Assembly (NCBI RefSeq): GCF_011682175.1
Contig: NZ_WHJG01000017.1
Coordinates: forward strand, 62,001 to 126,000
Length of the DNA: 64,000 nt
Source of the DNA: Massilia frigida
GTDB lineage: Bacteria; Pseudomonadota; Gammaproteobacteria; Burkholderiales; Burkholderiaceae_D
Reading direction: 5' to 3'
The number at the start of each line of letters is the position of its first letter. Within the stretch, counting starts at the first letter, position 1. Position numbers and translations under genes: made by a program. Positions 835 through 54,817 of this stretch are shown piece after piece. Under the pieces are notes generated by a model. That model made no database searches and was not told where the DNA came from. It saw only the letters and a program-made list of their open reading frames with translations.

Positions 835-2399
835 CAGTTAGTCCTCATCATGGTCACGCGCGCGGCCAGCGCCAGCGCGGCGTGGTCGGCATCGGAAAAC
901 GGCATCTTGCGGCCCTTGATTTCCTGGTATGGCTCGTGGCCTTTACCGGCCAGCAGGATCACGTCCGGCTTGGCCGCATGCTTGATGGCCGACAGGATCG
1001 CGGCGGCGCGGTCTTCGATCGCCTGGAAGCGCGAGGTCGGATGGGCCGCATCCATGCCCGCGACGATCTGGGCGATGATGGCGGCCGGCTCTTCGCTGCG
1101 CGGATTGTCGCTGGTGACCAGCACGTGTTCGGCGATCTGCGCGATGGCGCCCATCTGCGGGCGTTTGCCCGGATCGCGGTCGCCGCCGCAGCCGAACACG
1201 CACCACAGCTGGCCGCCGCGTTCGTGCGCGACCTGGCGCAGGGCGCCCAGGGTTTGCTCCAGCGCGTCCGGCGTGTGGGCGTAATCGATCACCACCATCG
1301 GTGCGTCCTGGCCGCCGATCTGCTGCATGCGGCCCGGGGCCGGGGTCAGCGCTTCGACCGCGTCGAGCGCGCTGCGCAGGGCGACACCCTTGGCCAGCAG
1401 TGCGCCCAGTACCGCCAGCGCGTTGCTGATATTGAAGTGGCCAACCAGGCGCGTCTTGACCTGGGCGCTGCCGAGCGGCGAATCGAGATGGAATTCGGTG
1501 CCCGCATGACGGCTGCGGAACTGCGAGGCGCGCAGCATGGTCACGCCGGCGATGTCGGGCTGGGAGGCCGCGTCGCGCAGGGTGTAGCCGGTCACGGATG
1601 GTACGCCGCCGGTCTTGGAAATCAATTGGTTGACCAGGCGTTGTCCGGCCGGGTCGTCGAGGTTAAGCACTGCTGTTTTCAATCCTGGCCACGCGAACAG
1701 CTTGGCCTTCGCCGCTTCGTAGCATTCCATGGTGCCGTGATAATCGAGGTGGTCGCGCGTCAGGTTGGTGAACAGCGCAACGTCAAAATGCATGCCCAGG
1801 GTACGGCCTTGCCCGAGCCCGATGGAGCTTACCTCAATCGCCAACGCAGTGGCGCCCGCATCGCGCACGGCGGCGAGTTTTTCGGCCAGCAGCACGGCGT
1901 CCGGGGTGGTGTAGCCGGTGACGTCGTACTCGACGTCGCCGCGGCCGTTGAACAGGCCCACGCCCAGGGTGCCGATGACGGCGGCCGTCTCGCCCAGGCG
2001 CGCAAAGGCCTGGCCGAGCCAGACCGCGCACGAGGTCTTGCCGTTGGTGCCGGTCACGCCGACGGTGAACATGGCGCTATCGGGCATCCGGTGGCAGGCG
2101 TGCGCGATCGGGCCGGCGTGTAATTTCAGGTCGGCCACGGCCAGGTGCGGCACGCTCCAGGCATCAAGCCAGGCGAAATCGCGCGCGTCGTACACCACGG
2201 CGGCGGCGCCCTGGGCGATGGCCTGGGCAATGTAGGCACGGCCGTCGGCGGCGTCGCCCGGATAGGCGAAGAACACATCGCCCGGCTTGACGCGGCGCGA
2301 GTCGGACACCAGCTTCGCGCCGGGCGCCGCCTGGGCGATCCAGGCGCAGATTTCCTGTGGATTCAAAGACGGCATTACATGACGCATTACATGACGCAT
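834..2399 (-). CDS. murE: UDP-MurNAc-L-Ala-D-Glu:meso-diaminopimelate ligase MurE
   Basis: Adds the third stem-peptide residue to UDP-MurNAc-dipeptide in the cytoplasm. The P-loop GTNGKTS is at residues 117-123 and a DNPRSEEP motif lies near residue 425; DNPR is the family signature for meso-diaminopimelate as substrate. Three in-frame ATGs (2399, 2387, 2375) arise from a 12-bp tandem repeat, so the protein may begin MRHVMRHVMPSLNP or just MPSLNP. I chose 2399 because a GGGGAGG ribosome site lies seven bases upstream and the ATG shares one base with the ftsI stop (TAATG). Family proteins usually begin near the third Met, so the first nine residues may be a dispensable addition. Confidence 0.96.
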   Translation of the reverse strand: MRHVMRHVMPSLNPQEICAWIAQAAPGAKLVSDSRRVKPGDVFFAYPGDAADGRAYIAQAIAQGAAAVVYDARDFAWLDAWSVPHLAVADLKLHAGPIAHACHRMPDSAMFTVGVTGTNGKTSCAVWLGQAFARLGETAAVIGTLGVGLFNGRGDVEYDVTGYTTPDAVLLAEKLAAVRDAGATALAIEVSSIGLGQGRTLGMHFDVALFTNLTRDHLDYHGTMECYEAAKAKLFAWPGLKTAVLNLDDPAGQRLVNQLISKTGGVPSVTGYTLRDAASQPDIAGVTMLRASQFRSRHAGTEFHLDSPLGSAQVKTRLVGHFNISNALAVLGALLAKGVALRSALDAVEALTPAPGRMQQIGGQDAPMVVIDYAHTPDALEQTLGALRQVAHERGGQLWCVFGCGGDRDPGKRPQMGAIAQIAEHVLVTSDNPRSEEPAAIIAQIVAGMDAAHPTSRFQAIEDRAAAILSAIKHAAKPDVILLAGKGHEPYQEIKGRKMPFSDADHAALALAARVTMMRTN

Positions 2400-2404
2400 T
2401 ACAT
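2373..2404 (-). repeat. 12-bp tandem repeat at the murE start codon
   Basis: The unit cattacatgacg is present as two full copies plus eight bases of a third. It spans the ftsI stop and the murE start and creates ATG codons every 12 bp in the murE frame (MRHV repeated) and a second set in the ftsI frame. Because the unit is a multiple of three, copy-number change would lengthen or shorten the MurE N-terminus without a frameshift. Confidence 0.9.
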
Positions 2405-4183
2405 GACCTCCCCGGAGCCATCGTTTGGCGCGACGATTTCAGTCACGTCCGAATCGGGCGGAATATTGAGTGCGCGCAGCGCGTTGGCGGCCAGCGCGGC
2501 GAAGGTCGGCGCCGCCACGATGCCGCCGAAGTGGCCGATCGCGGTCGGTTCGTCGATCATGACGGCGATGATGAAGCGCGGGTTCGACATCGGCACCATG
2601 CCCACGAAACTGCCGATGTACTTGCGCGGCATGGCGTACTTGCCGTTTTCGACCTTGTACGCGGTGCCGGTCTTGCCGCCCACGCGGTAGCCCGCGACCC
2701 GCGCCTGCTTGGCGGTGCCGTGTTCGCCCGAGATCACGCGTTCGAGCATTTCGCGCATCTCGCGCGCGGTCTTCGGCTTGATGATCTGGCGCCCGACCGG
2801 CGGCTCCGTGACCTTCTGGAACGACAGCGGAATGGTGTCGCCATCGCGCGCGAACATCATGTAGCCGCGCGCCAGCTGCAGCAGCGAGACCGAGATGCCG
2901 TTCCCGTAGCTCATGGTGGCCTGTTCCACCGGACGCCACGATTTGTAGGGACGCACGCGCCCCGCCACAGCGCCGGGAAAACCGAACTTGGGCTGCTGGC
3001 CGAAACCGACCTCGGTAAACATCTCCCACATTTCGCGCGCCGGCATGGAGAGCGCAATCTTGGAAGTGCCGATATTGGACGACATTTCGATGATTTCGGC
3101 GACCGAGATCACGCCGTGCGGCTTGGTATCGGAAATCGGCGCGCCGTTGATCACCAGGCGCCCGGCGCCGGTATCGATGCGGGTATTGGGCGTGACGCGC
3201 CCGGTGTCGAGCGCCAGAGCCACGGTAAATGGCTTGAGGGTCGAGCCCGGCTCGAAGGTGTCGGTGATGACGCGGTTGCGCAGCTGCGCGCCGGTCAGGC
3301 CCTTGCGGTCGTTCGGGTCGTACGTCGGCCAGTTGGCCAGCGCCAGCACTTCGCCGGTTTTCACGTCCAGCACCACGGCGGCGCCGGCCTTGGCCTTGAA
3401 CTTGGCCACGGCTTCCTTCACCTGCGTAAAGGCGATGTACTGCAGCTTGCTGTCGACCGACAGGGTCAGGTCGCGGCCATCGTGCGGCTCCTTCGACAGG
3501 CCCACGTCTTCGACGATCTGGCCGAGGCGGTCCTTGATCACGCGGCGGCTGCCGGTGGTGCCGACCAGGGTCTTTTGCTGGGCCAGTTCCATGCTTTCCT
3601 GGCCGGCGTCTTCGACGTTGGTGAAACCGACCAGGTGGGTCATGGTTTCGCCCTGCGGATAGAAGCGTTTGTATTCCTTGCGCGTGTCCAGGCCCTTGAT
3701 GCCCAGTTTGGCGATCTGCTCGATCACCGGCATTTCCACCTGGCGCTTGAGGTAGACGAAGGTGCGGTCGGAATCGAGTTTCTTGCGCAGCTCGGCGTCG
3801 CTCATCTTGAGCAGCGCGGCCAGGGCGCGCAGTTTGTCCGGCGCCGAGGCCAGCACGTCTTCAGGGATGGCCCATACCGCCTTGACCGGTACCGACGACG
3901 CCAGCACCTGGCCGTTGCGGTCGAGGATGCGCCCGCGCGTGGCGGGCAGTTCGATGGTGCGCTCGTAGCGCTGCTTGCCATAGCCAATGAGAACGTCTTC
4001 GGTGACGGTTTGCAGCCACATGGCGCGCCCGGCCAGCGCAACAAAGGAGGCGAACAGCACGAACAGCACGACGCGCGAACGCCAGGTCGGCAGGCTCACC
4101 GCCAGGACCGGGCTTTTCGAGAACGATACGCCTTTCGAGGCCGCGACACGCGCGCCCGCCACACCATTGCCACCGCGTTTCAT
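2399..4183 (-). CDS. ftsI: Peptidoglycan D,D-transpeptidase FtsI (PBP3)
   Basis: Septal class B penicillin-binding protein that cross-links peptidoglycan at the division site. From the ATG at 4183 it is 594 residues: a short cytoplasmic tail, one membrane anchor at about residues 37-57, the dimerisation domain, then the transpeptidase domain. All three active-site motifs are present: STLK at 314-317 (nucleophile Ser314), SSN at 368-370 and KTGT at 504-507. The frame stays open further upstream to 4459, but the 4183 start overlaps the ftsL stop as ATGA and gives the usual family length. It sits in the order ftsL-ftsI-murE-murF of the dcw cluster. Confidence 0.97.
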   Translation of the reverse strand: MKRGGNGVAGARVAASKGVSFSKSPVLAVSLPTWRSRVVLFVLFASFVALAGRAMWLQTVTEDVLIGYGKQRYERTIELPATRGRILDRNGQVLASSVPVKAVWAIPEDVLASAPDKLRALAALLKMSDAELRKKLDSDRTFVYLKRQVEMPVIEQIAKLGIKGLDTRKEYKRFYPQGETMTHLVGFTNVEDAGQESMELAQQKTLVGTTGSRRVIKDRLGQIVEDVGLSKEPHDGRDLTLSVDSKLQYIAFTQVKEAVAKFKAKAGAAVVLDVKTGEVLALANWPTYDPNDRKGLTGAQLRNRVITDTFEPGSTLKPFTVALALDTGRVTPNTRIDTGAGRLVINGAPISDTKPHGVISVAEIIEMSSNIGTSKIALSMPAREMWEMFTEVGFGQQPKFGFPGAVAGRVRPYKSWRPVEQATMSYGNGISVSLLQLARGYMMFARDGDTIPLSFQKVTEPPVGRQIIKPKTAREMREMLERVISGEHGTAKQARVAGYRVGGKTGTAYKVENGKYAMPRKYIGSFVGMVPMSNPRFIIAVMIDEPTAIGHFGGIVAAPTFAALAANALRALNIPPDSDVTEIVAPNDGSGEVM

Positions 4184-4452
4184 TGCTCCCCTTCCGTCAG
4201 GTACTGCGTACGCGCCGGGGTCAGCGGCGTCATGTCGAGCTTGTCGCGCGCGATCTGTTCGATGCGCGCATTGGTACCCAGGGTCGACTGGTCCAGCTGC
4301 AATTGCGACCAGTCGATGTCGAGCTGGCGCGCCTGCTGTTCGAGCTTGCCCAGTTCGATGAACAGGTTGCGCGCCTGGAACTGGGCATTCACCAGCGACA
4401 GCGCGCAGCCGACCAGCAGCGCGGCGAGCACGATGTTGATCTTGCCGTTCAC
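4180..4452 (-). CDS. ftsL: Cell division protein FtsL
   Basis: Small bitopic divisome protein of 90 residues that works with FtsB and FtsQ to activate septal synthesis. A hydrophobic segment covers about residues 5-23, followed by a periplasmic region rich in Leu, Gln and Glu with heptad character ([20 protein letters not shown]) that should form the coiled coil with FtsB. Both ends overlap neighbours by four bases as ATGA (rsmH stop upstream, ftsI start downstream), as expected for a tightly coupled dcw operon. Sequence conservation is low in this family, so the call rests mainly on size, topology and position. Confidence 0.93.
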
Positions 4453-5414
4453 GGCGCACTCCGGGCAGGCAGGCGTTCGGCCACCCGCATCACGGCCGAG
4501 CGGGAGCGCGGATTGCCGTCGACCTCCAGGTCGGACGGTTTCATCTTGCTCACCAGCTTCATCAGCGGCTGCGGCAGGTCGACCGCGCGGATCGGCAGGC
4601 GGCGGTCGGGCTGCTCGACCTTGACCTTGCTGGCCAGGAACTGCTTGACCATGCGGTCTTCCAGTGAGTGGAAGCTGATCACGGCCATGCGCGCGCCGGG
4701 CGCGAGCATGGCGTAGGCCGCGCTCAAGCCTGTTTCAAGGTCTTCAAGCTCTTTATTGATGAAAATCCGGATAGCCTGAAAGGTCCGGGTGGCCGGATCC
4801 TTGCCCTTCTCCCGGGTTTTGACCGCGTTTGCCACGATGCCGGCAAGCTGTCGTGTGCTTGAAATTGGTTCGACTGCCCGGCGAGCAACAATCGCCTTTG
4901 CAATCTGAAAAGCAAACCGTTCTTCCCCATAATCGCGAATCACCCTTTCCAATTGTTGTTCAGTCTCGCTGGCCAGCCACTCGGCGGCGGAAACGCCGCG
5001 CGTGGTGTCCATGCGCATGTCGAGCGGACCGTCGTTGCGGAAGCTGAAACCGCGCGCGGCGTCGTCCACCTGGGGCGAGGAAATGCCCAGGTCGAGCAGG
5101 ATGCCATCGACCCGCGCCACGCCGCGCGCCTGTAGCGCCTGCTGCATGGTGGCGAAACTGTCGTGCACGATCTCGAAACGCGGGTCGTCGATCTGGCCCG
5201 CCGTGGCGATCGCCTGCAAATCCTTGTCGAAGGCGAACAAGCGCCCGTTCGGACCCAGGCGCGACAGGATCAGGCGACTGTGTCCACCGCGACCGAAGGT
5301 CCCGTCTATATATGTGCCATCGGCACGCGCACCCGTCAGATCGAGCGCATCGACCGCTTCGTCCAGCAACACCGTCCGGTGCTGAAATTCCGGCACCGCC
5401 ACCACATTCATCAT
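4449..5414 (-). CDS. rsmH: 16S rRNA m4C1402 methyltransferase RsmH (MraW)
   Basis: S-adenosylmethionine-dependent methyltransferase that modifies N4 of C1402 in 16S rRNA. The 321-residue protein shows [13 protein letters not shown] near the N-terminus, GTFGRGGHS at about 38-46, [18 protein letters not shown] and [13 protein letters not shown] near the C-terminus, all RsmH hallmarks. The start may be 5414 or the next codon (MM). The middle third, about 4740-4965, has much lower GC and A/T-ending codons than both flanks, although the protein it encodes looks normal; this may be a recombined segment. It lies between mraZ and ftsL and overlaps ftsL by four bases. Confidence 0.97.
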
Positions 5415-5423
5415 CGGCGCGCC

Positions 5424-5852
5424 TTAGAAAGAAAAATTAGATAACACATCGGGCATGCCACCGGCGACAGCGGCTTGCTCGTCCTCGGCCAGTTTGGCGG
5501 CATCCCAGATCTCGAAATGGCTGCCCATGCCCAGCAGCATGACCTCGCGGGTCAGGCCGACGGCGCTGCGCAGCTCGGGGGAAATGAGGATGCGGCCGGC
5601 GGAATCGAGCTCGACATCGCAGGCGTTGCCGAGGAAGATACGCTGCCACGCGCGGGCCGACATCGGCCAGGCGGCAATTTGCTCGCGGTGCGATTCCCAC
5701 ACCGGACGCGGAAAAAACAGCAGGCACCCGTGCGGGTGGCGGGTAAGCGTGAGGCGGCCTTCGCACTGGACTGCGAGTGCGTCGCGATGCTTGGCGGGAA
5801 TGGACATCCTGCCTTTCGCATCGAGATTGATTGCGGACGCGCCTTGAAACAC
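5424..5852 (-). CDS. mraZ: Transcriptional regulator MraZ
   Basis: First gene of the dcw cluster, 142 residues. It contains two AbrB-like SpoVT/MraZ repeats, recognisable by [14 protein letters not shown] near residue 10 and [14 protein letters not shown] near residue 82. MraZ binds repeated GTGGG boxes in its own promoter and in enterobacteria represses the cluster; four such boxes lie upstream here. The start codon is GTG at 5852 (CTC GTG TTT CAA), preceded by a modest GTAGGTAA ribosome site. The gap to rsmH is nine bases. Confidence 0.97.
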
Positions 5853-5916
5853 GAGTTACCTACTTGGAAAAGTTATTATGAATTCGGTGTTTTGGCGCAA
5901 GGAGCATCATTTTTCT

Positions 5917-5951
5917 CCCACAAAACTACACTTTTTCACACAGTTGCCCAC
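5917..5951 (-). promoter_or_regulatory. Four MraZ boxes (10-bp period) upstream of mraZ
   Basis: Read on the minus strand, GTGGG (5951-5947), GTGTG (5941-5937), GTGTA (5931-5927) and GTGGG (5921-5917) follow one another at exactly 10-bp steps. MraZ is known to bind direct GTGGG repeats spaced by about one helical turn, so this is a strong autoregulatory operator; the two middle boxes are degenerate. It overlaps the predicted -10 element and extends downstream of it, a position suited to repression. Confidence 0.85.
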
Positions 5952-5978
5952 TTTAGATGAAGCCATCTGGACGGTCAA
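5950..5978 (-). promoter_or_regulatory. Candidate sigma-70 promoter of the dcw cluster (Pmra)
   Basis: On the minus strand TTGACC (5978-5973) is followed after 17 bp by TAAAGT (5955-5950): five of six and four of six consensus positions. The -10 element overlaps the first MraZ box. A second possible pair, TTGACT (6022-6017) with TTTTAG (5999-5994), lies upstream and is weaker. The mraZ leader would be about 90 nt. Confidence 0.65.
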
Positions 5979-6390
5979 GCGCTTTCGATCGTGCTAAAAG
6001 GGAATTTTGTTAATGAAGTCAAGGACTTAGCGCATTACCTTGAAGGATCTTCAAAGTAAAATATGTCGAAAAATTAGAGACTTAGAGAAGACAGTGAATG
6101 TTCAACCTCATCTGTACACATGGGTTTGCGAGACACAACAAAGCTTAAAATAATTACATCTGCTTACTTTTACGCAACGGATGAGTAAATTGTCCGATGC
6201 GCGCGATGGAGTGTGGTAGTGGATCGGATCAGGTGGCAACGGTGCCGACCGAATCGGGTTGGCTGCTTGTGCAATAACGCGCCTCGGGAAAGCCGAAATG
6301 GGCACACATGCGGGGGAAATGACAGCGGCATGCCGCGCCGCCGGAGAGGCGGAGCGGAGTGCATCGGCGCCTTGCGCGCCGGATATTCAA
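5979..6390. other. Intergenic region between dcw promoter and rnpB
   Basis: About 410 bp with an AT-rich left part and a GC-rich right part. Short open frames occur but none has a ribosome site or recognisable product. Near 6367-6381, just past the 3' end of rnpB, there is a small GGCGC-GCAAG-GCGCC dyad without a clear T run, which might end or be processed from the rnpB transcript. I see no other feature. Confidence 0.6.
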
Positions 6391-6742
6391 TGTGAAGCAG
6401 GCCGATAGGCCGGATTTTGTTACGGCGACTACCCTTGCAGGCATTCGCTATGACAGCCATTCCTCTAGGCGCCGAATTACTCCGGCGCTCAAGCTCCCTA
6501 CCCGCACGCTCCGCGAGCCGCCTCAACGCGTGCCTATTTGGGATTGCTCCAGGTGGAGGTTACCGCGTTTCACCGTAACTTAATACGCTCGTCTCTGTGG
6601 CCCTATTCCTCGCCTTATACTCCCCGGCTTGCGCCGGTCGGCTTTCAGCGGACGGCCATTAACCGTCACCCTGCTCTATGGAGTCCGGACCTTCCTCCCG
6701 CCGACGCATTACGCGCCAGCCAGCGACTGTCTGGCCTGCTTC
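6391..6742 (-). ncRNA. rnpB: RNase P RNA (type A)
   Basis: Catalytic RNA of RNase P, which removes 5' leaders from tRNA precursors. On the minus strand the 5' end GAAGCAGGCCAGACAGTCGC pairs with the 3' end GGCCTATCGGCCTGCTTC to form helix P1. The universally conserved GAGGAAGGTCCGGACTCC lies downstream of the 5' end, followed by AGCAGGGTGACGG. GGTAAACCC-like tRNA-contact segments are not exact, but the 3' conserved block with AAATAGGCACGC and the closing helices is in order. The length of about 350 nt is normal for a type A RNA. The exact ends are inferred from the P1 pairing. No protein-coding claim should be made over this interval. Confidence 0.95.
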
Positions 6743-6750
6743 ACCCCACC

Positions 6751-6779
6751 ATTGTACCGTGCCCCGGCCCTGCGGACAA
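6751..6779 (-). promoter_or_regulatory. Promoter of rnpB
   Basis: On the minus strand TTGTCC (6779-6774) and TACAAT (6756-6751) are separated by 17 bp. Transcription would begin about eight bases later, at or near the predicted mature 5' end of the RNA. Motif and position both fit a strong stable-RNA promoter. Confidence 0.75.
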
Positions 6780-6909
6780 AGTTTCCGATTGCTATCGCCC
6801 CACTGATACCGATTTGGATATCAATCTCGCAAAAAATGTGATCGCTGCAAAGTTACCCAATGTACATACGTACTATTAAAATATCGACAATTTACAAAAA
6901 GGAAACTTA

Positions 6910-8346
6910 ATGACACTGTTGCCTCTTGCCGCACTGATCAGCACCACCCTGTTCGCCAGCACCGCCGCCCACGCCTCGGACTGGCCGGAGAGCTTCTCGA
7001 AATGCGCCGCCCAGGGCGGCACCTGTGACGCCGGCACCGGCAAGCGCCAGGTATCGTTCGGCATCAAGAACAAATGGGTGGTCAAATCGCTCAGCGGCAA
7101 AGTTGCCTGCACCACCGCCACGTTCGGCAGCGATCCTTATCCGGGTGTCGACAAGAAATGCGCGCTAGGCCCGCTCGATGGCGGCACCACGCCACCGACC
7201 ACCCCGCCGACGACACCGCCAACGACCCCGCCGACCACCCCGCCAGCCGGCACCGATCCGGTGACGCAGGCAGCCCCGGCAACCGGCTGGGCCAGCTACA
7301 GCACCGGCACCCGCGGCGGCGCGGCGGCGGTACAGAAGGATGTCTTCCTGGTCAGCTCGGCATCGCAACTGCTGTCCGCGCTCAAGACCGAGGGCGGCCG
7401 GCCGATGCAGATCAAGATCTACGGCACCATCGACATGGCGGCCGACGGCCCGTTCAAGAGTGTCGCCGAGCAGGGCGTGCGCAGCCTGATTTCGCTGCCA
7501 TCGAATACCACCCTGATCGGCGCGGGCCCGAATGCGGGCATCGTCAACGGCCGCATCATGATCAAAGGCGTGGACAATGTGATCGTGCGCAACCTGACCA
7601 TCGCCAACCCATGCGACATCGCCCCGGTGTGGGATCCGAAAGATACCAGTACCGGCAACTGGAACTCGCGTTATGACGGCCTGAACGTCGACAAGTCGAC
7701 CCACGTCTGGATCGACCACAACACCTTCACCGACGCGCCGCGCACCGACGACCAGTTCCCGAAAGAGAACGGCAAACTCAAGCAATGCCACGATGGCGCG
7801 CTCGACATCAAGAATGGCGCCGACTATGTGACCGTGTCGAACAATGTGTTCAAGCTGCACGAGAAAAACACCCTGGTCGGCTCGTCCGACGACACCACGT
7901 CCGACGATGACCACCTGACCGTGACCTTCCATGGCAATCATTACATGGACATCACCGGGCGTTCGCCGCGCGTGCGTTTCGGTAAGGTCCACGTGTACAA
8001 CAATTACTACCAGGGCGACCGCGACGCCAAACTGTACCCGCACCACTACAGCATCGGCGTGGGCTACAAGGCCAAGATCGTCTCGCAGCATAATGCCTTC
8101 GACGTCATCGGCGCCAAGGAATGCGGCAATGTGGTCGAGTCCTCGGGTTCCTCCGGCAAAACCGGCGCCATCATCGACAGCGGTTCCCTGCTGAACGGCG
8201 TGGCACTGGGCATGGGCGGCGACAGCTGCAAGTTCAGCAGCGCGATCGGCTGGACCCTGCCGTACACGCCGACCGTGATCGATGCGTCGACAGTGCGCGA
8301 ATCGGTGCTGCGCAACGCCGGCGCAGGCAAGCTCGTGGTCCGCTAA
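6910..8346 (+). CDS. Secreted pectate lyase, polysaccharide lyase family 1
   Basis: Cleaves pectate by beta-elimination outside the cell. The 478 residues comprise a signal peptide (about 1-22, ending AHA-SDW), a small four-cysteine N-terminal module (about 24-88), a linker of TTPP repeats (about 91-113) and a PL1 parallel beta-helix catalytic domain. PL1 landmarks are WIDHNTF, DGALDIKNGADYVTVSNN, VTFHGNHYMDITGRSPRVR with the catalytic arginine region, and VHVYNNYY. The start has an AAGGAAA ribosome site. It stands alone, with rnpB divergent and the CNNM/CBS gene convergent. The N-terminal module is of unknown role; wall or substrate attachment is possible. Confidence 0.93.
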   Translation: MTLLPLAALISTTLFASTAAHASDWPESFSKCAAQGGTCDAGTGKRQVSFGIKNKWVVKSLSGKVACTTATFGSDPYPGVDKKCALGPLDGGTTPPTTPPTTPPTTPPTTPPAGTDPVTQAAPATGWASYSTGTRGGAAAVQKDVFLVSSASQLLSALKTEGGRPMQIKIYGTIDMAADGPFKSVAEQGVRSLISLPSNTTLIGAGPNAGIVNGRIMIKGVDNVIVRNLTIANPCDIAPVWDPKDTSTGNWNSRYDGLNVDKSTHVWIDHNTFTDAPRTDDQFPKENGKLKQCHDGALDIKNGADYVTVSNNVFKLHEKNTLVGSSDDTTSDDDHLTVTFHGNHYMDITGRSPRVRFGKVHVYNNYYQGDRDAKLYPHHYSIGVGYKAKIVSQHNAFDVIGAKECGNVVESSGSSGKTGAIIDSGSLLNGVALGMGGDSCKFSSAIGWTLPYTPTVIDASTVRESVLRNAGAGKLVVR

Positions 8347-8432
8347 GAAAGGCAAGCACGCACGCAAGACAGCGACGCCGCCGCCCGCCCCCGGCCGCGG
8401 CATCGATGTCAGGAGCACAAGAGCGCTGCGCG

Positions 8433-9767
8433 CTAGCGCGGCCGGGCCGGCGCTGCGCCGCCGGCCTCCCCCAGCTCCGCCACCAGCACCCGGTCGATCC
8501 GGTGCCGGTCCATATCCACCACCTCGAAACGATAGCGCTCCCACACAAAGCGGTCGGACGCGGCGGGCACATGCCCAAGTTGCTCCAGAACAAAACCAGC
8601 CAGGGTTTGATACGCCCCGCTCGTCTCGCCGGGCAACATCTGCCCGATCCCGAGCACCTCGCGCAGGCGCGCCAGCGGCATGGCGCCGTCGAGCAGCCAG
8701 CTGCCGTCATCGCGCCGCACGGCGTCTGGCTCGCGCGTCGCATCGCGTGCGTCGCCGGGCAGCGCGCCGATCAGCGCCGCCATCAGGTCGTTCAAGGTCA
8801 CCATGCCCTTGAGCTGGCCATGCTCGTCGACCACCAGCGCCAGTTCGGCTTGCCGCTGGCGCAACTGTTCCAGCAAGCCGCGCGCGCTCACCGTATCGGG
8901 TACCAGCAGCGCCGGACGCATGGCCGCGCCGATATCGATGGCGTCCAGCGCCTGATGATGGATCGCCTGGGCGAACAGCTCGCCCGCATCGACCACGCCC
9001 AGCACCTGGGGCGGCTCGCCGCGCACCACCGGAAAGCGGCTGAACGGGCTGGCCGCGATGCGCGCCAGGTTCTCGCCGCAGTCGCCATCGAGGTCGATCA
9101 ATTGCAAGTCGGCGCGCGGGGTCATCAGCGCGTCGAGGCGCTGGTCGTCCAGGCGCAGGGCGCGCGCGGCGATGTCCGATTCGGTCTTGTCGAGCACGCC
9201 GGCGTCGGCGCTTTCCCTGAGCATGCCGCTGATCTCGTCGGCGGTCGGGGCGCTGTCGGGCGCGCGTCCCAGGCCCAGCATGCGCATGATCAGCTCGCTC
9301 AAGGCGGACAGCAGGCGCACGAACGGCGCCATCAGCCGCGACAGCGCCTGCAAGGGAGGCGCGATGACCGAGGCCACGAATTCCGGATACTGGATCGCGA
9401 TGCGCTTGGGCACCAACTCGCCCAGCAGGATGGAGACCAGGGTGATGCCGGCCACCACCAGCGCCAGCGCCACCTGGCGCGCATAGGGCGCCAGCAGCGG
9501 CACCGCAGCCAGTTGCGGTGCCAGGCGTGCGGTCAGCGACGCTTCGCCGAAGGCGCAGTTGAAGATTGAAATGACGGTAATGCCGACCTGGACCGTGGAG
9601 AGGAAGGCGCCCGGGTCGTCGGCCAGCCGCATGGCCACACGCGCGCCGCCACGGCCCTCGGCGGCCATTTTTTCGAGCCGCACGCGCTTGGACGACACCA
9701 GCGCCAGCTCGGACATGGCGAACACGCCATTGAGCAGGATCAGAACGAGGATGATCAGCAAATCCAT
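8433..9767 (-). CDS. CNNM (DUF21) / CBS-domain membrane protein, TlyC-CorC type
   Basis: Integral membrane protein of 444 residues. Hydrophobic segments in the first 190 residues form the CNNM/DUF21 domain, with ELALVSSKRVRLEKMA and LLGELVPKRIAIQYPE as family signatures. A CBS pair follows, then a CorC/HlyC C-terminal domain (DGSWLLDGAMPLARLREVLG). The family is linked to Mg2+/Co2+ efflux or tolerance; the old label hemolysin is misleading. I placed the start at 9767 (MDLLIILVLILLNG) because the open frame upstream adds only 16 unconserved residues. A second, different family member lies at 38381. Confidence 0.9.
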   Translation of the reverse strand: MDLLIILVLILLNGVFAMSELALVSSKRVRLEKMAAEGRGGARVAMRLADDPGAFLSTVQVGITVISIFNCAFGEASLTARLAPQLAAVPLLAPYARQVALALVVAGITLVSILLGELVPKRIAIQYPEFVASVIAPPLQALSRLMAPFVRLLSALSELIMRMLGLGRAPDSAPTADEISGMLRESADAGVLDKTESDIAARALRLDDQRLDALMTPRADLQLIDLDGDCGENLARIAASPFSRFPVVRGEPPQVLGVVDAGELFAQAIHHQALDAIDIGAAMRPALLVPDTVSARGLLEQLRQRQAELALVVDEHGQLKGMVTLNDLMAALIGALPGDARDATREPDAVRRDDGSWLLDGAMPLARLREVLGIGQMLPGETSGAYQTLAGFVLEQLGHVPAASDRFVWERYRFEVVDMDRHRIDRVLVAELGEAGGAAPARPR

Positions 9768-9957
9768 GGCAGGCGGTTGAAAGGACAGGGAATCTACCCA
9801 CGTTAGCCCTGCCATATCGCCGCAGTTTGAGGCAGGCCAATGTCGCGCGCCCTTCGCCCGGGATAGTAATTCTGATATTTAATGTCGTAATTTCAAAAGC
9901 TTGCAAGAATCGGCTCGCATAGAATGGCGCATACTCAACCATCAAGGCAGAGACGAC

Positions 9958-11661
9958 ATGACGCACCCTTCCCGCAGTGGCGGCCAGATCCTGGTCGATG
10001 CGCTCAACATTCACGGCGTCGACACCGCCTTCGGGGTTCCCGGCGAAAGCTACCTCGACGTGCTCGACGCCCTGCACGATTCCGACATCCGCTTCATCAT
10101 CAACCGCCAGGAAGGCGGCGCCGCCTTCATGGCCGAAGCCTACGGCAAGCTGACCGGCAAGCCCGGCATCTGCTTCGTCACGCGCGGCCCGGGCGCCACC
10201 AACGCCTCGATCGGCGTGCACACGGCCTACCAGGATTCGACCCCGATGATCCTGTTCATCGGCCAGGTCGGCAACGATTTCATCGACCGCGAAGCGTTCC
10301 AGGAAATCGACTACCGCCGCATGTACGGCCAGATGGCCAAGTGGGTCACCCAGATCGACCGCGCCGACCGCATTCCCGAATACATCGCGCGCGCCTTCCA
10401 GGTCGCCACCAGCGGCCGTCCCGGTCCGGTGGTGCTGGCGCTGCCGGAAGACATGCTGATCGACGTCGCCTCGGTGGCCGACACGCGCCGCTACCAGCCG
10501 GTGCAGGCATCGCCCTCGGGCGCCCAGATCGCCACCCTGCGCGAGATGCTTGCCAGCGCTAAAAAACCGGTCGTGCTGCTCGGCGGCGCCAGCTGGAACG
10601 CCCAGGCTTGCGCCGACCTGCAACGTTTCGCCGAAGCCAACGCGCTGCCGGTCGGCTGCACCTTCCGCTTCCAGGACTTGCTCGACAACGCACACCCCAA
10701 CTATATAGGTGACGTCGGCATCGGGATCAACCCGAAACTGGCGGCGCGCGTGAAAAACGCCGACCTGGTGATCGCCATCGGCCCGCGCCTGGGCGAAATG
10801 ACCACCGGCGGCTACACCCTGCTGGCCTCGCCCGTGCCGGCCCAGCGCCTGGTGCATTTCCATGCCGATGCCGAGGAACTGGGCAGCGTCTACCAGGCCG
10901 ACCTGATGATCAACAGCGGCGCCGCGCAAGCCTGCGCCATGCTGGCCGCGATGGAGCCGGTGGACTCGTCCGCCTGGCGCGGTACGGTGGCCGAGGCGAA
11001 AGCCGAGCTGGCCGCCTACCAGGAACAGCCGCCGATTTTCAAGGATGGCCAGGCCCCGCTCGACCTGTGGCAAGTGGTGCAGGAATTGATGGCGCAAGTG
11101 CCGCGCGATACCGTCATCACCAATGGCGCCGGTAATTACGCATCGTGGGCGCACCGCTTTTACCGCTATGGCGGCATGCGTACCCAGCTGGCGCCGACCA
11201 ATGGCGCGATGGGGTACAGCGTTCCATCGGGAGTCGCGGCAAAGATTGTCGATCCGACACGTACAGTGGTGACCTTTGCCGGCGATGGCGAATTCATGAT
11301 GAACGGCCAGGAACTGGCCACCGCGGTGCAATACAAGGCCGGCGTGATTATTATTGTCTTCAATAATGGCATGTTCGGCACCATCCGCATGCACCAGGAG
11401 CGCGATTATCCGGGCCGCGTCTCGGGGACCAGCTTGCATAACCCGGACTTTGCGGAACTGGCCGAGGCCTATGGCGCGCATGGCGAGGTGGTCAATGCGA
11501 CGGTGGAATTCGGTCCGGCGCTGGCACGCGCACTGGCCCACACCCGTGAAAAATCACTGCCGGCGGTGATCGAACTGCGCTATGACGGGAATTTGATTAC
11601 GCCGAATGCGACGCTGGAAACCATCAGGAAGACGGCGGAAGCCGCAAAAGCCGCCAAGTAA
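9958..11661 (+). CDS. Acetolactate-synthase-like thiamine diphosphate enzyme
   Basis: A 567-residue ThDP-dependent enzyme of the acetolactate synthase/oxalyl-CoA decarboxylase superfamily. The N-terminal PYR domain carries the activating glutamate in INRQEGGAAFMAEAYGK; a central domain follows; the C-terminal PP domain has the ThDP-Mg motif GDGEFMMNGQE continuing to FNNGMFGTIRMHQ. There is no regulatory subunit gene next to it, so it is unlikely to be the biosynthetic IlvB, and the 2-keto acid substrate cannot be told from sequence. The start at 9958 is preceded by AAGGCAGAG. Strong hairpins with a T run follow, so it is monocistronic. Confidence 0.85.
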   Translation: MTHPSRSGGQILVDALNIHGVDTAFGVPGESYLDVLDALHDSDIRFIINRQEGGAAFMAEAYGKLTGKPGICFVTRGPGATNASIGVHTAYQDSTPMILFIGQVGNDFIDREAFQEIDYRRMYGQMAKWVTQIDRADRIPEYIARAFQVATSGRPGPVVLALPEDMLIDVASVADTRRYQPVQASPSGAQIATLREMLASAKKPVVLLGGASWNAQACADLQRFAEANALPVGCTFRFQDLLDNAHPNYIGDVGIGINPKLAARVKNADLVIAIGPRLGEMTTGGYTLLASPVPAQRLVHFHADAEELGSVYQADLMINSGAAQACAMLAAMEPVDSSAWRGTVAEAKAELAAYQEQPPIFKDGQAPLDLWQVVQELMAQVPRDTVITNGAGNYASWAHRFYRYGGMRTQLAPTNGAMGYSVPSGVAAKIVDPTRTVVTFAGDGEFMMNGQELATAVQYKAGVIIIVFNNGMFGTIRMHQERDYPGRVSGTSLHNPDFAELAEAYGAHGEVVNATVEFGPALARALAHTREKSLPAVIELRYDGNLITPNATLETIRKTAEAAKAAK

Positions 11662-11674
11662 CAGGCAGCCATAT

Positions 11675-11748
11675 CAGCACTGATACCGATGGTATCGGTG
11701 CTGAGCACCAGAAGGAGCGCATGCCAAACAGGCCATGCGCTCCTTTTT
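11675..11748 (+). terminator. Tandem hairpins, the second a rho-independent terminator
   Basis: The first hairpin pairs 11675-11687 with 11691-11703 (13 bp with one G-T pair, 3-nt loop). The second pairs AAGGAGCGCATG (11712-11723) with CATGCGCTCCTT (11734-11745) and runs into TTTTT. This is a good terminator for the ThDP-enzyme gene. The A-rich start of the second stem also gives a T run on the opposite strand, so it may work both ways. Confidence 0.85.
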
Positions 11749-11769
11749 GACAATGAGGGGAAGAATGCC

Positions 11770-12012
11770 TTACTGCGGACTGACCAGCTGCGCTTGCGGC
11801 AGCAGTTCAAGACCAAGCTCGGCTGGCATAGGCAGCGGCCGGTCGTAGGCGTTTGGCGCTTCGGTCACTGGCGCCGTGAAAAAACAAGCCACCGTGGCGA
11901 TGAACGCCAATCCGATGACGTTGCGTATCCACATCGACCCCGCCACATGAATCGTCTCCGGCGAAATCAACAAGCTGAAATTGTCTGGGCTTTTCACACT
12001 GCCTCCTGTCAT
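11770..12012 (-). CDS. Small single-pass membrane protein, unknown function
   Basis: I do not recognise this 80-residue product. It has one hydrophobic segment (NVIGLAFIATVACFFTA) in the middle and a Pro/Leu-rich tail (PLPMPAELGLELLP). From the ATG at 12012 it reads MTGGSVKSPDNF; an AGGAGG ribosome site lies inside this start and points to an alternative GTG start at 11997, giving 75 residues. The frame is also open to 12078. It is convergent with the ThDP-enzyme gene and follows an AT-rich stretch containing TATAAATT on its strand, a likely promoter. Confidence 0.5.
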   Translation of the reverse strand: MTGGSVKSPDNFSLLISPETIHVAGSMWIRNVIGLAFIATVACFFTAPVTEAPNAYDRPLPMPAELGLELLPQAQLVSPQ

Positions 12013-12099
12013 AGTTTTGTAATAATTTATACCCTTTTCCGATAAAAGCATAGCTAATATTGAGTCGGATTGATGCATATGTGTGCCAGCACATACAGG

Positions 12100-12534
12100 C
12101 TAATTATTCGCCGCGCGTTTGAGCCAGCGCATGACACTTCCTAGCAATGGAAGCTTTTCATATAACTCCTCGGCGGCGTCCCAATAATCGCGATGGATCA
12201 TGACTGCCCCGCCCGCATCGAAGCGGATCCGGGTGGCGCCGCGGATGCATTGCGGCGTCCTGGAAAAGCGCTTCATTCGGAACAGAAATTCCCATGTCAG
12301 GAAGGCAGCGTCACCCTGCAGCACGGTCGACGTCACCACGAAGCGCGGCTGCTCGACCTGTGCAAACATGTGCACGAAAATGCCGATAATCGGCTCAATC
12401 CCGCACACCTCGTTGAACGGGTCCTTGAACTGCGCATCGGGCGCATACATCTGCATCAGCTGCGCGCGCACCGACGCGCGCTCGATACTCTCGTAAAAAC
12501 GCACCAGCGGTGCCAGTTCCGGCGCCCGGTTCAT
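12100..12534 (-). CDS. NTF2-like (SnoaL fold) protein
   Basis: A 144-residue protein of the nuclear-transport-factor-2-like fold, seen in VRFYESIERASVRAQLMQMYAPDAQFKDPF and the later FRMKRFSRTPQCIRG and WDAAEELYEKLPLLG. This fold is used by many small enzymes and binding proteins, so the activity is unknown. The start overlaps the SDR stop by four bases (ATGA), making it the last gene of the light/lipid-type cluster. It is intact although several upstream operon members are broken. Confidence 0.8.
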   Translation of the reverse strand: MNRAPELAPLVRFYESIERASVRAQLMQMYAPDAQFKDPFNEVCGIEPIIGIFVHMFAQVEQPRFVVTSTVLQGDAAFLTWEFLFRMKRFSRTPQCIRGATRIRFDAGGAVMIHRDYWDAAEELYEKLPLLGSVMRWLKRAANN

Positions 12535-53023: not shown

Positions 53024-53323
53024 ATGATCAAGCTCCAGCTCGTGCTGCGCAATCCCTCCCGCGACCCCATCGACGACCCCGCCCTGTGCGCCCTGCTTGA
53101 GGCGCACGGCCTGCGCGTGAGCGCGTGCGGCATGGCCACCATCTCGGCGGAAACCTCCGTGGCCGAGGCGGAAAATTTATTCGGACCAATTCCAAATGTA
53201 AGAGCCGGGTTCGCTTCCGATGTAACATCCACACCGGCACTCGCCATTCCGGCGGACCTGCGACATGCCGTCAGCCTGATTACCATCGCTCCGCGCCACG
53301 CGGTGCCGGGCCAACCTACCTAG
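53024..53323 (+). CDS. Stand-alone subtilase-propeptide-like protein
   Basis: A 99-residue protein without signal peptide, nine bases upstream of the subtilase gene. I do not recognise it by name, but residues 29-54 (G-LRVSACGMATISAETSVAEAENLF-G core) align without gaps to residues 70-95 of the protease (core FTVSGRGRMTVSVRGSVAQ), with 12 of 26 identical. That stretch of the protease lies in its N-terminal pro-region. It may therefore be an inhibitor or folding helper of the protease. The C-terminal 35 residues are low in similarity to anything known to me. Function is inferred from this alignment and gene order only. Confidence 0.6.
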   Translation: MIKLQLVLRNPSRDPIDDPALCALLEAHGLRVSACGMATISAETSVAEAENLFGPIPNVRAGFASDVTSTPALAIPADLRHAVSLITIAPRHAVPGQPT

Positions 53324-53332
53324 GGGGAATCC

Positions 53333-54817
53333 ATGCAGCCATTCAAACCCAGCCCGCCAAGCCCTGCCCTCGACGAGCCAGCGCCGCCCGACGCCCAGCT
53401 GCGCATCGCCGTCACCTTCAAGGGCCGCGCCAGCGCCGGTCCGACCAAGCTGGCGGCGCGCCTGTCCTCGCGCAGCATACTCAGCTTCGAGCCCGCCCCC
53501 GGCGAAATGGAAACGGCCATCGAAGCGCTGCGCCAGCGCGGCTTCACCGTCTCCGGACGCGGCCGCATGACGGTGTCGGTGCGCGGCAGCGTGGCCCAGT
53601 TCGAGGAAGTGTTCGGCACGCACCTGACCCCGTTCAACCTGAGCAAAAAACAGAGCTATTCGAGCGACCAGGTGTTTTACCCGGCCAAGGGCGCCCCATG
53701 GAATCCCGATCCCGCCCTGTCCGCGCTGATTGACGACGCGTATATCCAGTGGCCCCATATCTACCTGGCCGACCCTGGCGCCAGCGCGCGCCCGCCGGCG
53801 GTCGGCTATTACCACCTCGACGTCCTCAAGGATGTGCCCGCCAAGCTCAACGCGGCCCATATCCACAAGGAACGCCATCACGGCGAAGGCATCCGCGTGG
53901 CCATGATCGATACCGGCTTCGACCATTCGCATCCCTTCTTCACGCGCAACGGCTTTACGTCCTCGGTGGTGCTGGCGCCCTCGGCCACCAACCGCCGCAC
54001 CGATCCGGGCAGCCACGGCACGGGCGAATCGGCCAATGTGTTTGCGGTGGCGCCGAAAGTGACTTTCATCGGCGTCAAGCTGGGCGACGATGACGATCCG
54101 AACGGCGGCGCCAGCATTCTCGAAGGCTTCCAGGAAGCGCTCAAGCACAAGCCGCACGTGATCACCGTGAGCATGTGCTACGACTTGCGCGACAACGATG
54201 GCGTGTCCGAACTAAAAGAATTGCCGAACGGCCTGAAAGCGCTGGAAGCGGAAATCCAGGCGGCGATTGCCAGCGGCATCGTGGTGGTCTTTTCCGCCGG
54301 CAACGGGCACTACGCCTTCCCGGCCTCGATGCCGGAAGTGCTGTGCGTGGGCGGCACCTTCGTGGCCGAAGATGGGGCCATGAAAGCCTCCGATTACGCG
54401 TCGGCCTTTACCAGCGGCATTTATTCAGGCCGTCACGTGCCCGATGTGTGCGGCCTGGTCGGCATGCTGCCGAATGCCGATTACATCATGCTGCCGGTCC
54501 CGCCCGGTGCCGAGATCGATACCGGCAACGCCGAGCATGACGGCACCACCGCCGGCGACGGCTGGGCCGTCTTCAGCGGCACCTCGGCCTCGGCCCCGCA
54601 AATCGCGGCCGTGTGCGCCCTGCTGCTGCAGAAAAACCCCAAGCTCACGCCGGCCGAGATCAAGGCCTTGCTGGTGCGCACCGCGATTGATGTGCGCGAA
54701 GGTTCGGCCAGCCCGGCCAGCGATCCGGAAGGCTTGGGCATCAAGGCCGGACCGGGCATCGATGGCGCCACCGGGGCTGGCCTGGTCGACGCCTTCGCCG
54801 CATGGCAGCAGGCGTAG
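53333..54817 (+). CDS. S8-family (subtilisin-like) serine protease without signal peptide
   Basis: A 494-residue protease. The pro-region (about 20-110) contains GFTVSGRGRMTVSVRGSVAQ and EEVFGTHLTPF, similar to propeptides that fold subtilases and sedolisins. The catalytic triad is Asp193 (MIDTGFDHSH), His228 (GSHGTGE) and Ser418 (FSGTSASAPQ), with oxyanion Asn324 (FSAGNGHY). There is no N-terminal signal peptide or membrane segment, so it is cytoplasmic or leaves by an unknown route. It follows the propeptide-like gene by nine bases and precedes the Gfo/Idh gene by two. Confidence 0.9.
   Translation: MQPFKPSPPSPALDEPAPPDAQLRIAVTFKGRASAGPTKLAARLSSRSILSFEPAPGEMETAIEALRQRGFTVSGRGRMTVSVRGSVAQFEEVFGTHLTPFNLSKKQSYSSDQVFYPAKGAPWNPDPALSALIDDAYIQWPHIYLADPGASARPPAVGYYHLDVLKDVPAKLNAAHIHKERHHGEGIRVAMIDTGFDHSHPFFTRNGFTSSVVLAPSATNRRTDPGSHGTGESANVFAVAPKVTFIGVKLGDDDDPNGGASILEGFQEALKHKPHVITVSMCYDLRDNDGVSELKELPNGLKALEAEIQAAIASGIVVVFSAGNGHYAFPASMPEVLCVGGTFVAEDGAMKASDYASAFTSGIYSGRHVPDVCGLVGMLPNADYIMLPVPPGAEIDTGNAEHDGTTAGDGWAVFSGTSASAPQIAAVCALLLQKNPKLTPAEIKALLVRTAIDVREGSASPASDPEGLGIKAGPGIDGATGAGLVDAFAAWQQA

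What the first reader, a model, noticed from the sequence alone, without database searches (positions are those of the whole stretch)
53024..54817. Protease with a separately encoded copy of its own pro-domain
A 99-residue protein nine bases upstream of a signal-less subtilase aligns, without gaps, over residues 29-54 to residues 70-95 of the protease pro-region with 12 of 26 identities, including the VS..G..T.S and SVA..E..FG pattern. Subtilase propeptides are foldases and tight inhibitors. An intracellular protease paired with a free inhibitor-like pro-domain would be a control module resembling toxin-antitoxin or conflict systems, and I know of no described example with this layout.
Basis: partly seen in the sequence, partly recalled or inferred. 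Interest (0 to 1): 0.62.

Follow-up and report, generated by a model that had tools for sequence, protein, structure and literature searches.

The report
Protease paired with a free pro-domain
A bacterial subtilisin-type protease that seems to stay inside the cell is encoded next to a small protein that is a separate copy of the protease's own inhibitory pro-domain, a gene pair kept together in several distant groups of bacteria and best read as a protease with a built-in safety catch plus a second, free one.

Summary
A profile of 18 free domains, run on the window's 7.8-Mb genome, finds itself, the adjacent protease's pro-region (E 2.5e-6), then nothing until 0.885. Profile-profile E is 4.4e-12 over 97 columns. 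The predicted fold is propeptide-like, with moderate support.

The pair occurs in 12 of 12 genus genomes carrying the protease, in 17 of 18 loci of the named-genome scan (8 of them the same genomes; exception SAR324), and in Calothrix and Nonomuraea. The free domain is under purifying selection but changes faster than the protease.

Best reading: an inhibitor-first module in which the free domain caps the protease after its own pro-domain is shed. Inhibition is inferred, not tested. Some distant copies lie near patatin, caspase, CHAT or TPR-S genes, without a background control. Stand-alone propeptide inhibitors are known in eukaryotes, and ASP/ORF2 in bacteria, so this is a new variant of a known kind.

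The parts
53024..53323 (+). Free (trans) pro-domain protein, 99 aa, no apparent signal peptide; [quoted passage not shown]
   Evidence: ORF and sequence; AlphaFold2 pLDDT 82.9, pTM 0.72; orthologue next to the protease in 12 of 12 protease-bearing genus genomes; median dN/dS 0.278 over 21 pairs of 7 genomes of the genus
53322..53332 (+). AGGGGGA run (53322-53328) overlapping the TAG stop of the small gene, 4 nt before the protease ATG: probable ribosome-binding site and translational coupling
   Evidence: read from the sequence; of 12 genus genomes 7 have the 9-nt gap, 1 a 36-nt gap, 3 a 14-nt overlap, 1 both genes in one open frame; function inferred
53333..54817 (+). S8 serine protease, 494 aa, no apparent signal peptide, with its own in-cis pro-domain
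   Evidence: Pfam Peptidase_S8 E 4e-30, residues 184-460; D193, H228, S418 and N324 invariant in 14 of 14 rows (catalytic and oxyanion roles assigned from knowledge of S8)
53396..53767 (+). In-cis pro-domain of the protease (about residues 22-145, borders set by me)
   Evidence: Pro-kuma_activ match, residues 52-109; the free-domain profile A5 hits 53507-53635 with E 2.5e-6 in the whole genome; the read-through AlphaFold2 model aligns from residue 121 to 597 with intact pro-kumamolisin 1t1e, 408 residues, rmsd 4.0, Z 29.1
53882..54712 (+). S8 catalytic domain (residues 184-460)
   Evidence: Pfam; conserved triad

Best explanation
A two-gene protease control module. The protease is made as a zymogen whose in-cis pro-domain sits on the catalytic domain. 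The small upstream gene, translated just before and probably coupled to it, makes a free copy of the same domain. Because it is homologous to the part that normally caps the active site, the free copy is expected to bind the same face of the catalytic domain once the in-cis copy has been cut off, and so to hold the mature protease inactive until it is degraded or removed. Shown: the homology, the conservation of the pair over distant groups, purifying selection, gene order (small gene first) and, within the genus, short or overlapping spacing. Predicted: the fold. Inferred: binding site, inhibition, coupling, cytoplasmic location and the trigger for release.
For: Homology by shuffles, profile-profile comparison and whole-genome profile search. 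In 5 of 6 further genomes the free-domain profile also finds the protease pro-region, with E 1.1e-5 to 1.1e-4; in the sixth (Bradyrhizobium) only the free domain. Predicted fold: 9 of the 10 best VIA-align rows are S8/S53 propeptides or zymogens. Conserved pair. dN/dS medians: free 0.278, in-cis pro-domain 0.161, catalytic part 0.089. The read-through model is consistent with the in-cis domain in the zymogen position, so the free copy could take that site only after in-cis removal (inference). Precedents in which such proteins inhibit: SUB1-ProM (PMC6993865, passages seen) and ORF2, IC50 84.3 nM (PMC5638518, passages seen).
Against: No biochemical test. The tools gave no coordinates or interface scores, so no docking of the free domain is shown. 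VIA Z values are all under 8; Foldseek has no match at E 0.001 or better and its top rows are unrelated proteins such as ribosomal protein S6. In most pairs the free domain is not most similar to its own partner's pro-domain (own rank 1 in 3 of 21, as low as 23 of 24), so there is no clear cognate signal. One family member (SAR324, L051) has no free copy upstream, and its genome gives no match but its own pro-region at E 0.01, so the free copy is not always needed. More distant S8 relatives of Rhizobium and Mesorhizobium show no free copy upstream by inspection.
Confidence: 0.6

Rival explanations
1. The free domain is chiefly a folding chaperone in trans, as ORF2 is for Aeromonas sobria protease, and inhibition is only a by-product.
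For: S8 propeptides are foldases (established knowledge). ORF2 is encoded next to its subtilase and is needed for maturation (PMC5638518, passages seen). Foldseek lists chain 3wqb_B of the ASP/ORF2 complex entry as its fourth row, at E 0.46.
Against: This protease keeps its own pro-domain, so a second foldase looks redundant; ASP is propeptide-deficient. The SAR324 member lacks the free copy.
Confidence: 0.2
2. The free domain is an activator or sensor: it binds the in-cis pro-domain or competes with it, so that its synthesis or degradation triggers release of active protease.
For: Two homologous domains encoded in fixed order; faster change of the free copy; the free copies lack the IDDAYIQWP segment that is invariant in 14 of 14 aligned in-cis members (part of that segment was a search pattern, so its invariance is partly by selection).
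Against: I recall no such example for S8 proteases; no interaction data.
Confidence: 0.12
3. The pair is part of a conflict or cell-death locus: the protease is a toxic effector and the free domain its antitoxin.
For: Small gene first, short spacing or overlap in the genus. Scattered distribution: 12 of 392 family genomes, all of one genus; 1 of 398 phylum genomes at E 1e-50. Neighbours of distant copies include patatin-like proteins (Massilia sp. CF038 by motif; Geminicoccaceae by Pfam), a caspase (Bradyrhizobium), a CHAT protein, a GMC oxidoreductase, an alpha/beta hydrolase and a TPR-S/MAP3K-TRAF-binding protein (gammaproteobacterium), and an S8 protease with an MBL-fold protein that matches LmuA and Avs1a models (Anderseniella). 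The Calothrix copy is on a plasmid predicted mobilizable, a few kb from an integrase and a transposase.
Against: No control for how often such genes lie near any locus. The window pair has a trmL-like and a Gfo/Idh-like neighbour (names recalled), and the trmL-like gene is near the pair in 10 of 12 genus genomes, a fixed place as for a house gene. L044 has an OmpA-type neighbour; the neighbours of L050 and L052 were not put to a family search. In PADLOC the window protease matches only generic subtilase and, weakly, IetS models.
Confidence: 0.25
4. Chance resemblance of a short stretch.
For: The single-sequence Pfam match of the small protein is not significant (E 0.32); in 6 of 21 pairs 13 to 82 of 500 shuffles reach the single-sequence score.
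Against: Profile tests and controls; 12 of 21 pairs, the window's included, have no shuffle as high.
Confidence: 0.01

Closest known systems
Plasmodium SUB1-ProM, with POIA1, yeast proteinase B inhibitor, Arabidopsis subtilisin propeptide-like inhibitor 1 and TgMIC5
   Same: Small stand-alone protein with a subtilisin propeptide fold; SUB1-ProM is encoded beside subtilisin genes and inhibits the protease whose propeptide it resembles (PMC6993865, passages seen).
   Different: Eukaryotic. Here bacterial, no apparent signal peptide, directly upstream and probably coupled, and detectably homologous in sequence to the adjacent pro-domain.
Aeromonas sobria ASP/ORF2
   Same: Bacterial subtilase operon with a separately encoded chaperone that inhibits the protease through its C-terminal end (PMC5638518, passages seen).
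   Different: ASP is extracellular and propeptide-deficient; ORF2 is encoded downstream. Here the protease keeps its pro-domain and the small gene is upstream.
S53 (kumamolisin) activation domain, Pfam PF09286
   Same: Best, though sub-threshold, Pfam match of the window's in-cis and free domains; structural alignments to pro-kumamolisin 1t1e.
   Different: Here on an S8 catalytic domain with Asp-His-Ser and oxyanion Asn, not the S53 catalytic residues (recalled).
IetS and other S8 defence proteases
   Same: S8 protease; weak PADLOC match (IetS E 0.0026, residues 414-452).
   Different: Similarity is confined to a short stretch around the catalytic Ser; whether an IetA-like ATPase gene lies near was not tested.

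Membership tests
S8 subtilases | Asp-His-Ser triad and oxyanion Asn in the S8 fold | tested here: met
   Peptidase_S8 E 4e-30; D193, H228, S418, N324 invariant in 14 of 14 rows; the model aligns to subtilisins with Z about 29
Pro-kumamolisin activation domain (PF09286) | Score at or above the Pfam gathering cut-off | tested here: not met
   Window protease 20.4 bits and small protein 11.7 bits against a cut-off of 23.5. At E up to 1, 6 of 18 free domains and 8 of 14 proteases matched, best E 0.0012 and 4.1e-4; scores of the other members were not shown
Stand-alone propeptide-like inhibitors (MEROPS I9-like kind) | Separate gene product with propeptide fold | tested here: met
   Separate ORF; sequence homology to the in-cis pro-domain; predicted fold with Z under 8, so the fold support is moderate
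Stand-alone propeptide-like inhibitors (MEROPS I9-like kind) | Inhibits a subtilase | not testable with these tools
   Needs an enzyme assay
ASP/ORF2 operons | Protease lacks its own propeptide | tested here: not met
   In-cis pro-domain present
ASP/ORF2 operons | Chaperone gene directly downstream of the protease gene | tested here: not met
   Small gene is directly upstream
Toxin-antitoxin systems | One product toxic alone, the other neutralises it | not testable with these tools
   Needs expression tests
Toxin-antitoxin systems | Two small adjacent co-oriented genes, often overlapping | tested here: inconclusive
   Adjacent and co-oriented; 9-nt gap in 7, 36-nt gap in 1, 14-nt overlap in 3 and one open frame in 1 of 12 genomes; but the protease is large

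The most novel reading that the evidence does not exclude
A scattered bacterial cell-death or conflict module: an intracellular subtilase effector with a double lock, an in-cis pro-domain and a free antitoxin-like pro-domain copy, tuned by turnover of the free copy and associated with patatin, caspase, CHAT and TPR-S loci in several lineages.
Probability: 0.25. Interest if true: 0.8.

Novelty: new variant of a known kind. Interest (0 to 1): 0.6.

Why it matters
It would show that bacteria, too, use detached copies of a protease's own pro-domain as a separately adjustable inhibitor, encoded directly beside the zymogen. The duplication appears old and the two copies have been kept side by side, so the pair lets one ask how a domain that acts as foldase and inhibitor in cis divides those jobs when a second copy works in trans.

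Tried and rejected
Chance match: rejected. Recent copying of the pro-domain into the neighbouring gene: not favoured. Trees were built with 19 of 21 free and 22 of 24 in-cis domains that I had (near copies L037 and L038 left out). The first (41 rows) was disturbed by long branches: free and in-cis sides separate (98/96), but the Mesorhizobium in-cis row falls among free domains and the Calothrix and Nonomuraea free domains fall on the in-cis side. For the second I dropped four more rows, three of them flagged as long branches: the in-cis domains of Rhizobium and Mesorhizobium and both domains of the gammaproteobacterium. There 16 free domains form one side of a branch (100/97), and the Calothrix and Nonomuraea free domains fall beside their own in-cis domains (81/83); one origin of all free domains is not rejected (p-AU 0.306). 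Roots are midpoints only.

Natural fusion in Massilia sp. H-1 (free domain and protease in one open frame): not used as evidence, because the assembly is rated 48% complete and the same frame also holds the tail of the patatin-like gene upstream.

Cognate pairing: I expected each free domain to score best with its own partner. Own rank was 1 in 3 of 21 (window, tied with two others; L036; Calothrix) and as low as 23 of 24. In the shuffle test 12 of 21 pairs had no shuffle as high, 3 had one to three (L035, L037, L042), and 6 had 13 or more (L044 82, L050 76, L046 21, L049 19, L048 18, L047 13).

Solved structures by sequence: profiles of free and in-cis domains find no convincing relative, best E 1.6 and 0.023 to unrelated enzymes. 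NCBIfam and PADLOC give nothing for the small protein. Viral contigs, protease profile only: 41 stretches matched a pattern, none a relative. Phages: 22 records with weak matches, none covering 80% of the query. In one search two further weak matches to the small protein (E 0.0063 and 0.0084) lie elsewhere and were set aside. A first alignment for the read-through model placed free domains on the in-cis region; I then used read-through rows plus protease rows. PMC8195603 was searched for six terms (subtilisin, subtilase, phospholipase, cholesterol, MAP3K, tyrosinase) with no occurrence.

Full report
What is there. Window 53024-53323 encodes a 99-aa protein; nine bases later, in the same frame, 53333-54817 encodes a 494-aa protease. 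The protease is an S8 subtilase (Peptidase_S8 E 4e-30, residues 184-460) preceded by a region that resembles, below the curated cut-off, the activation domain of kumamolisin-type proteases (Pro-kuma_activ E 6.7e-4, residues 52-109). The only Pfam hint of the small protein is the same family over residues 25-54, at a non-significant E of 0.32. No signal peptide is apparent by eye in either.

Is the resemblance real. None of 500 shuffles of the small protein reaches the score of the pair (61 against mean 28.4, sd 5.1, maximum 50). The single-sequence test is not so clear in every relative: of 21 pairs, 12 have no shuffle as high, 3 have one to three and 6 have 13 to 82. Profiles settle it. A5, 18 small proteins, against A6, 13 protease pro-regions: probability 97.6, E 4.4e-12, 97 columns, reaching the C-terminal strand. 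In my rerun (E 2.3e-12, 85 columns) the score is 69.8; the best of 100 column-shuffled versions of A6 is 18.6 and the best of 11 slices further down the protease is 10.6. The 9 small proteins from outside the genus alone give E 4.4e-11 against A6, and 9 small proteins of the genus against 10 pro-regions from outside it E 2.1e-7 over 36 columns. A5 against the window's own 7.8-Mb genome in six frames gives three matches up to E 1: the small gene (2.4e-33, itself a row of A5), the pro-region of the neighbouring protease (window 53507-53635, 2.5e-6), and a frame with two stops elsewhere (0.885). A5 contains no pro-region. In 6 other genomes at E 0.01 the same search finds the small gene in 5 (not in SAR324) and the protease pro-region in 5 (E 1.1e-5 to 1.1e-4; not in Bradyrhizobium), and nothing else.

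Fold. [quoted passage not shown] Foldseek has no match at E 0.001 or better; its first rows are unrelated (E 0.28 to 0.43, among them ribosomal protein S6), with the ASP/ORF2 chain at rank 4, POIA1 at 18 and subtilisin prosegments at 21 and 24. In the second look by VIA-align 2, 9 of the 10 best rows are S8 or S53 propeptides or zymogens (3cnq, 1t1e, 2z56, 1scj, 3whi, 2z58, 2z57, 1spb, 2zwp; Z 5.2-6.1); the tenth is ABCA1. All are under Z 8, which the tool warns can mean a common arrangement only, so the fold supports the homology but does not carry it. A second model, of the window DNA read through the TAG between the genes (597 residues, 18 rows, pLDDT 71.0, pTM 0.71), gives both domains the same order of core elements, with extra elements in the in-cis one. 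It aligns to intact pro-kumamolisin 1t1e over 408 residues (model 121 to 597, rmsd 4.0, Z 29.1) and to pro-subtilisin E 3whi over 320 (model 124 to 595, rmsd 3.2, Z 30.1), consistent with the in-cis domain in the zymogen position. No coordinates or interface scores were available, so nothing is known of where the free domain would dock.

Conservation. Of 60 relatives searched, 12 have the protease matched along its length, all among the 17 genomes of the window's genus (shorter matches to other S8 proteases set aside; in one, G013, the match is in two pieces). The small gene is next to it in 12 of 12. In a larger sample 12 of 392 family genomes have the protease at E 1e-80, all in this genus. 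Spacing: 9 nt in 7, 36 nt in 1, 14-nt overlap in 3, one open frame in 1. The small gene lies upstream in 17 of 18; the exception is SAR324 (L051). The scan was by two patterns of the protease, so it did not select for the small gene, but it did select for part of the IDDAYIQWP segment. In two Bradyrhizobium loci (L046, L052) the small frame has no ATG, GTG or TTG start before the conserved part. A tblastn of plasmid records added Calothrix sp. 336/3 (plasmid) and Nonomuraea gerenzanensis (an 11.85-Mb record filed as a plasmid) at about 44% identity, both with a small gene upstream. The Calothrix small protein resembles its partner's pro-region strongly (score 129, shuffles at most 45). Of the other plasmid hits I looked at three, Rhizobium, Mesorhizobium and Paenibacillus (35 to 43% or less identical); none showed such a small gene upstream by inspection. 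In a sample of 398 Pseudomonadota genomes only the window's own has the protease (E 1e-50) or the small protein (E 1e-4).

Evolution. Over 21 pairs of 7 genomes of the genus median dN/dS is 0.278 for the small gene, 0.161 for the in-cis pro-domain and 0.089 for the catalytic part: a real gene under purifying selection, looser than its partner. In the tree sixteen free domains from Massilia, Bradyrhizobium, alphaproteobacteria and Desulfosarcinaceae stand apart from the in-cis domains (100/97), pointing to an old duplication kept as a pair; the Calothrix and Nonomuraea free domains group with their in-cis domains (81/83), but one origin is not rejected (p-AU 0.306).

How it most likely works. 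Propeptides of S8 proteases help fold and then cap the catalytic domain (established knowledge). The protease here already has one. A free copy, made first and probably coupled by the purine run that overlaps its stop codon, would be in place to re-cap protease that has shed its own pro-domain. The free copies lack the IDDAYIQWP segment that is invariant in 14 of 14 aligned in-cis members, though the Calothrix and Nonomuraea in-cis domains lack it too and its invariance is partly by selection; if the segment marks the normal cleavage junction, the free copy would bind without being cut, which is a guess. Some free copies end soon after the last strand in an aromatic or leucine residue (for example Bradyrhizobium, Anderseniella, the gammaproteobacterium, Nonomuraea), as a product-like tail would; this too is a guess. 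Inhibition, location and trigger are untested.

Surroundings. A trmL-like gene lies near the pair in 10 of 12 genus genomes and a Gfo/Idh-like gene in 8 of 12, within the stretches held (names recalled). In Massilia sp. CF038 the gene upstream carries a patatin-type motif but no Pfam match was listed for the piece searched. Distant copies have a patatin and a CHAT gene (L048), a caspase (L042), a tyrosinase (L049), an alpha/beta hydrolase, a GMC oxidoreductase and a TPR-S/MAP3K-TRAF-binding protein (L045/L083), or a second S8 protease with an MBL protein like LmuA and Avs1a (L047/L084) nearby. Such genes are found in effector loci (recalled), but I ran no control, and the 10 proteins per family search were chosen by me from ORF lists.

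What is known. [quoted passage not shown] Of PMC5638518 I saw passages: ASP needs ORF2, encoded just downstream, and ORF2 inhibits it. Of PMC10580911 I saw passages on propeptide selectivity. My searches listed no bacterial case with a retained in-cis pro-domain that I could recognise from titles and abstract starts; the lists were capped (15 of 374, 12 of 5,170, 12 of 39, 10 of 146), and the library lacks most subscription journals. Hence: new variant of a known kind.

Noticed in passing
L081 (SAR324, genome behind L051), 1179-12488: The one close family protease without a free pro-domain lies a few kb from a Baseplate_J gene and a pretoxin-HINT/M48 protein, and just upstream of a calcineurin-like phosphoesterase; possibly a contractile-injection or polymorphic-toxin locus.
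   Followed up: partly
L083 6543-19862 (gammaproteobacterium MAG): Run of genes on one strand: endonuclease/exonuclease/phosphatase, a TPR protein, a TPR-S/MAP3K-TRAF-binding protein, GMC oxidoreductase, alpha/beta hydrolase, an unsearched 141-aa ORF, then the free pro-domain and the protease.
   Followed up: partly
L084 10666-13949 (Anderseniella MAG): A 711-aa S8 protease beside an MBL-fold protein that matches LmuA (E 1.1e-53) and Avs1a (E 6.7e-29) models, next to the free pro-domain pair on the other strand.
   Followed up: partly
L046 2550-2942 and L052 2456-2860 (Bradyrhizobium): The free pro-domain frames are intact but have no ATG, GTG or TTG start before the conserved part; an unusual start, frameshift or sequencing error may be involved.
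   Followed up: no
L055 and L057 (Rhizobium and Mesorhizobium plasmids): More distant S8 relatives without a visible free copy sit among purine or deazapurine-type biosynthesis genes (folE, purB, queE in one, purH in the other), perhaps proteases of a biosynthetic cluster.
   Followed up: no
L087 9862-11988 (Massilia sp. H-1): Tail of a patatin-like gene, the free pro-domain and the protease lie in one open frame, in an assembly rated 48% complete; fusion or sequencing error.
   Followed up: no
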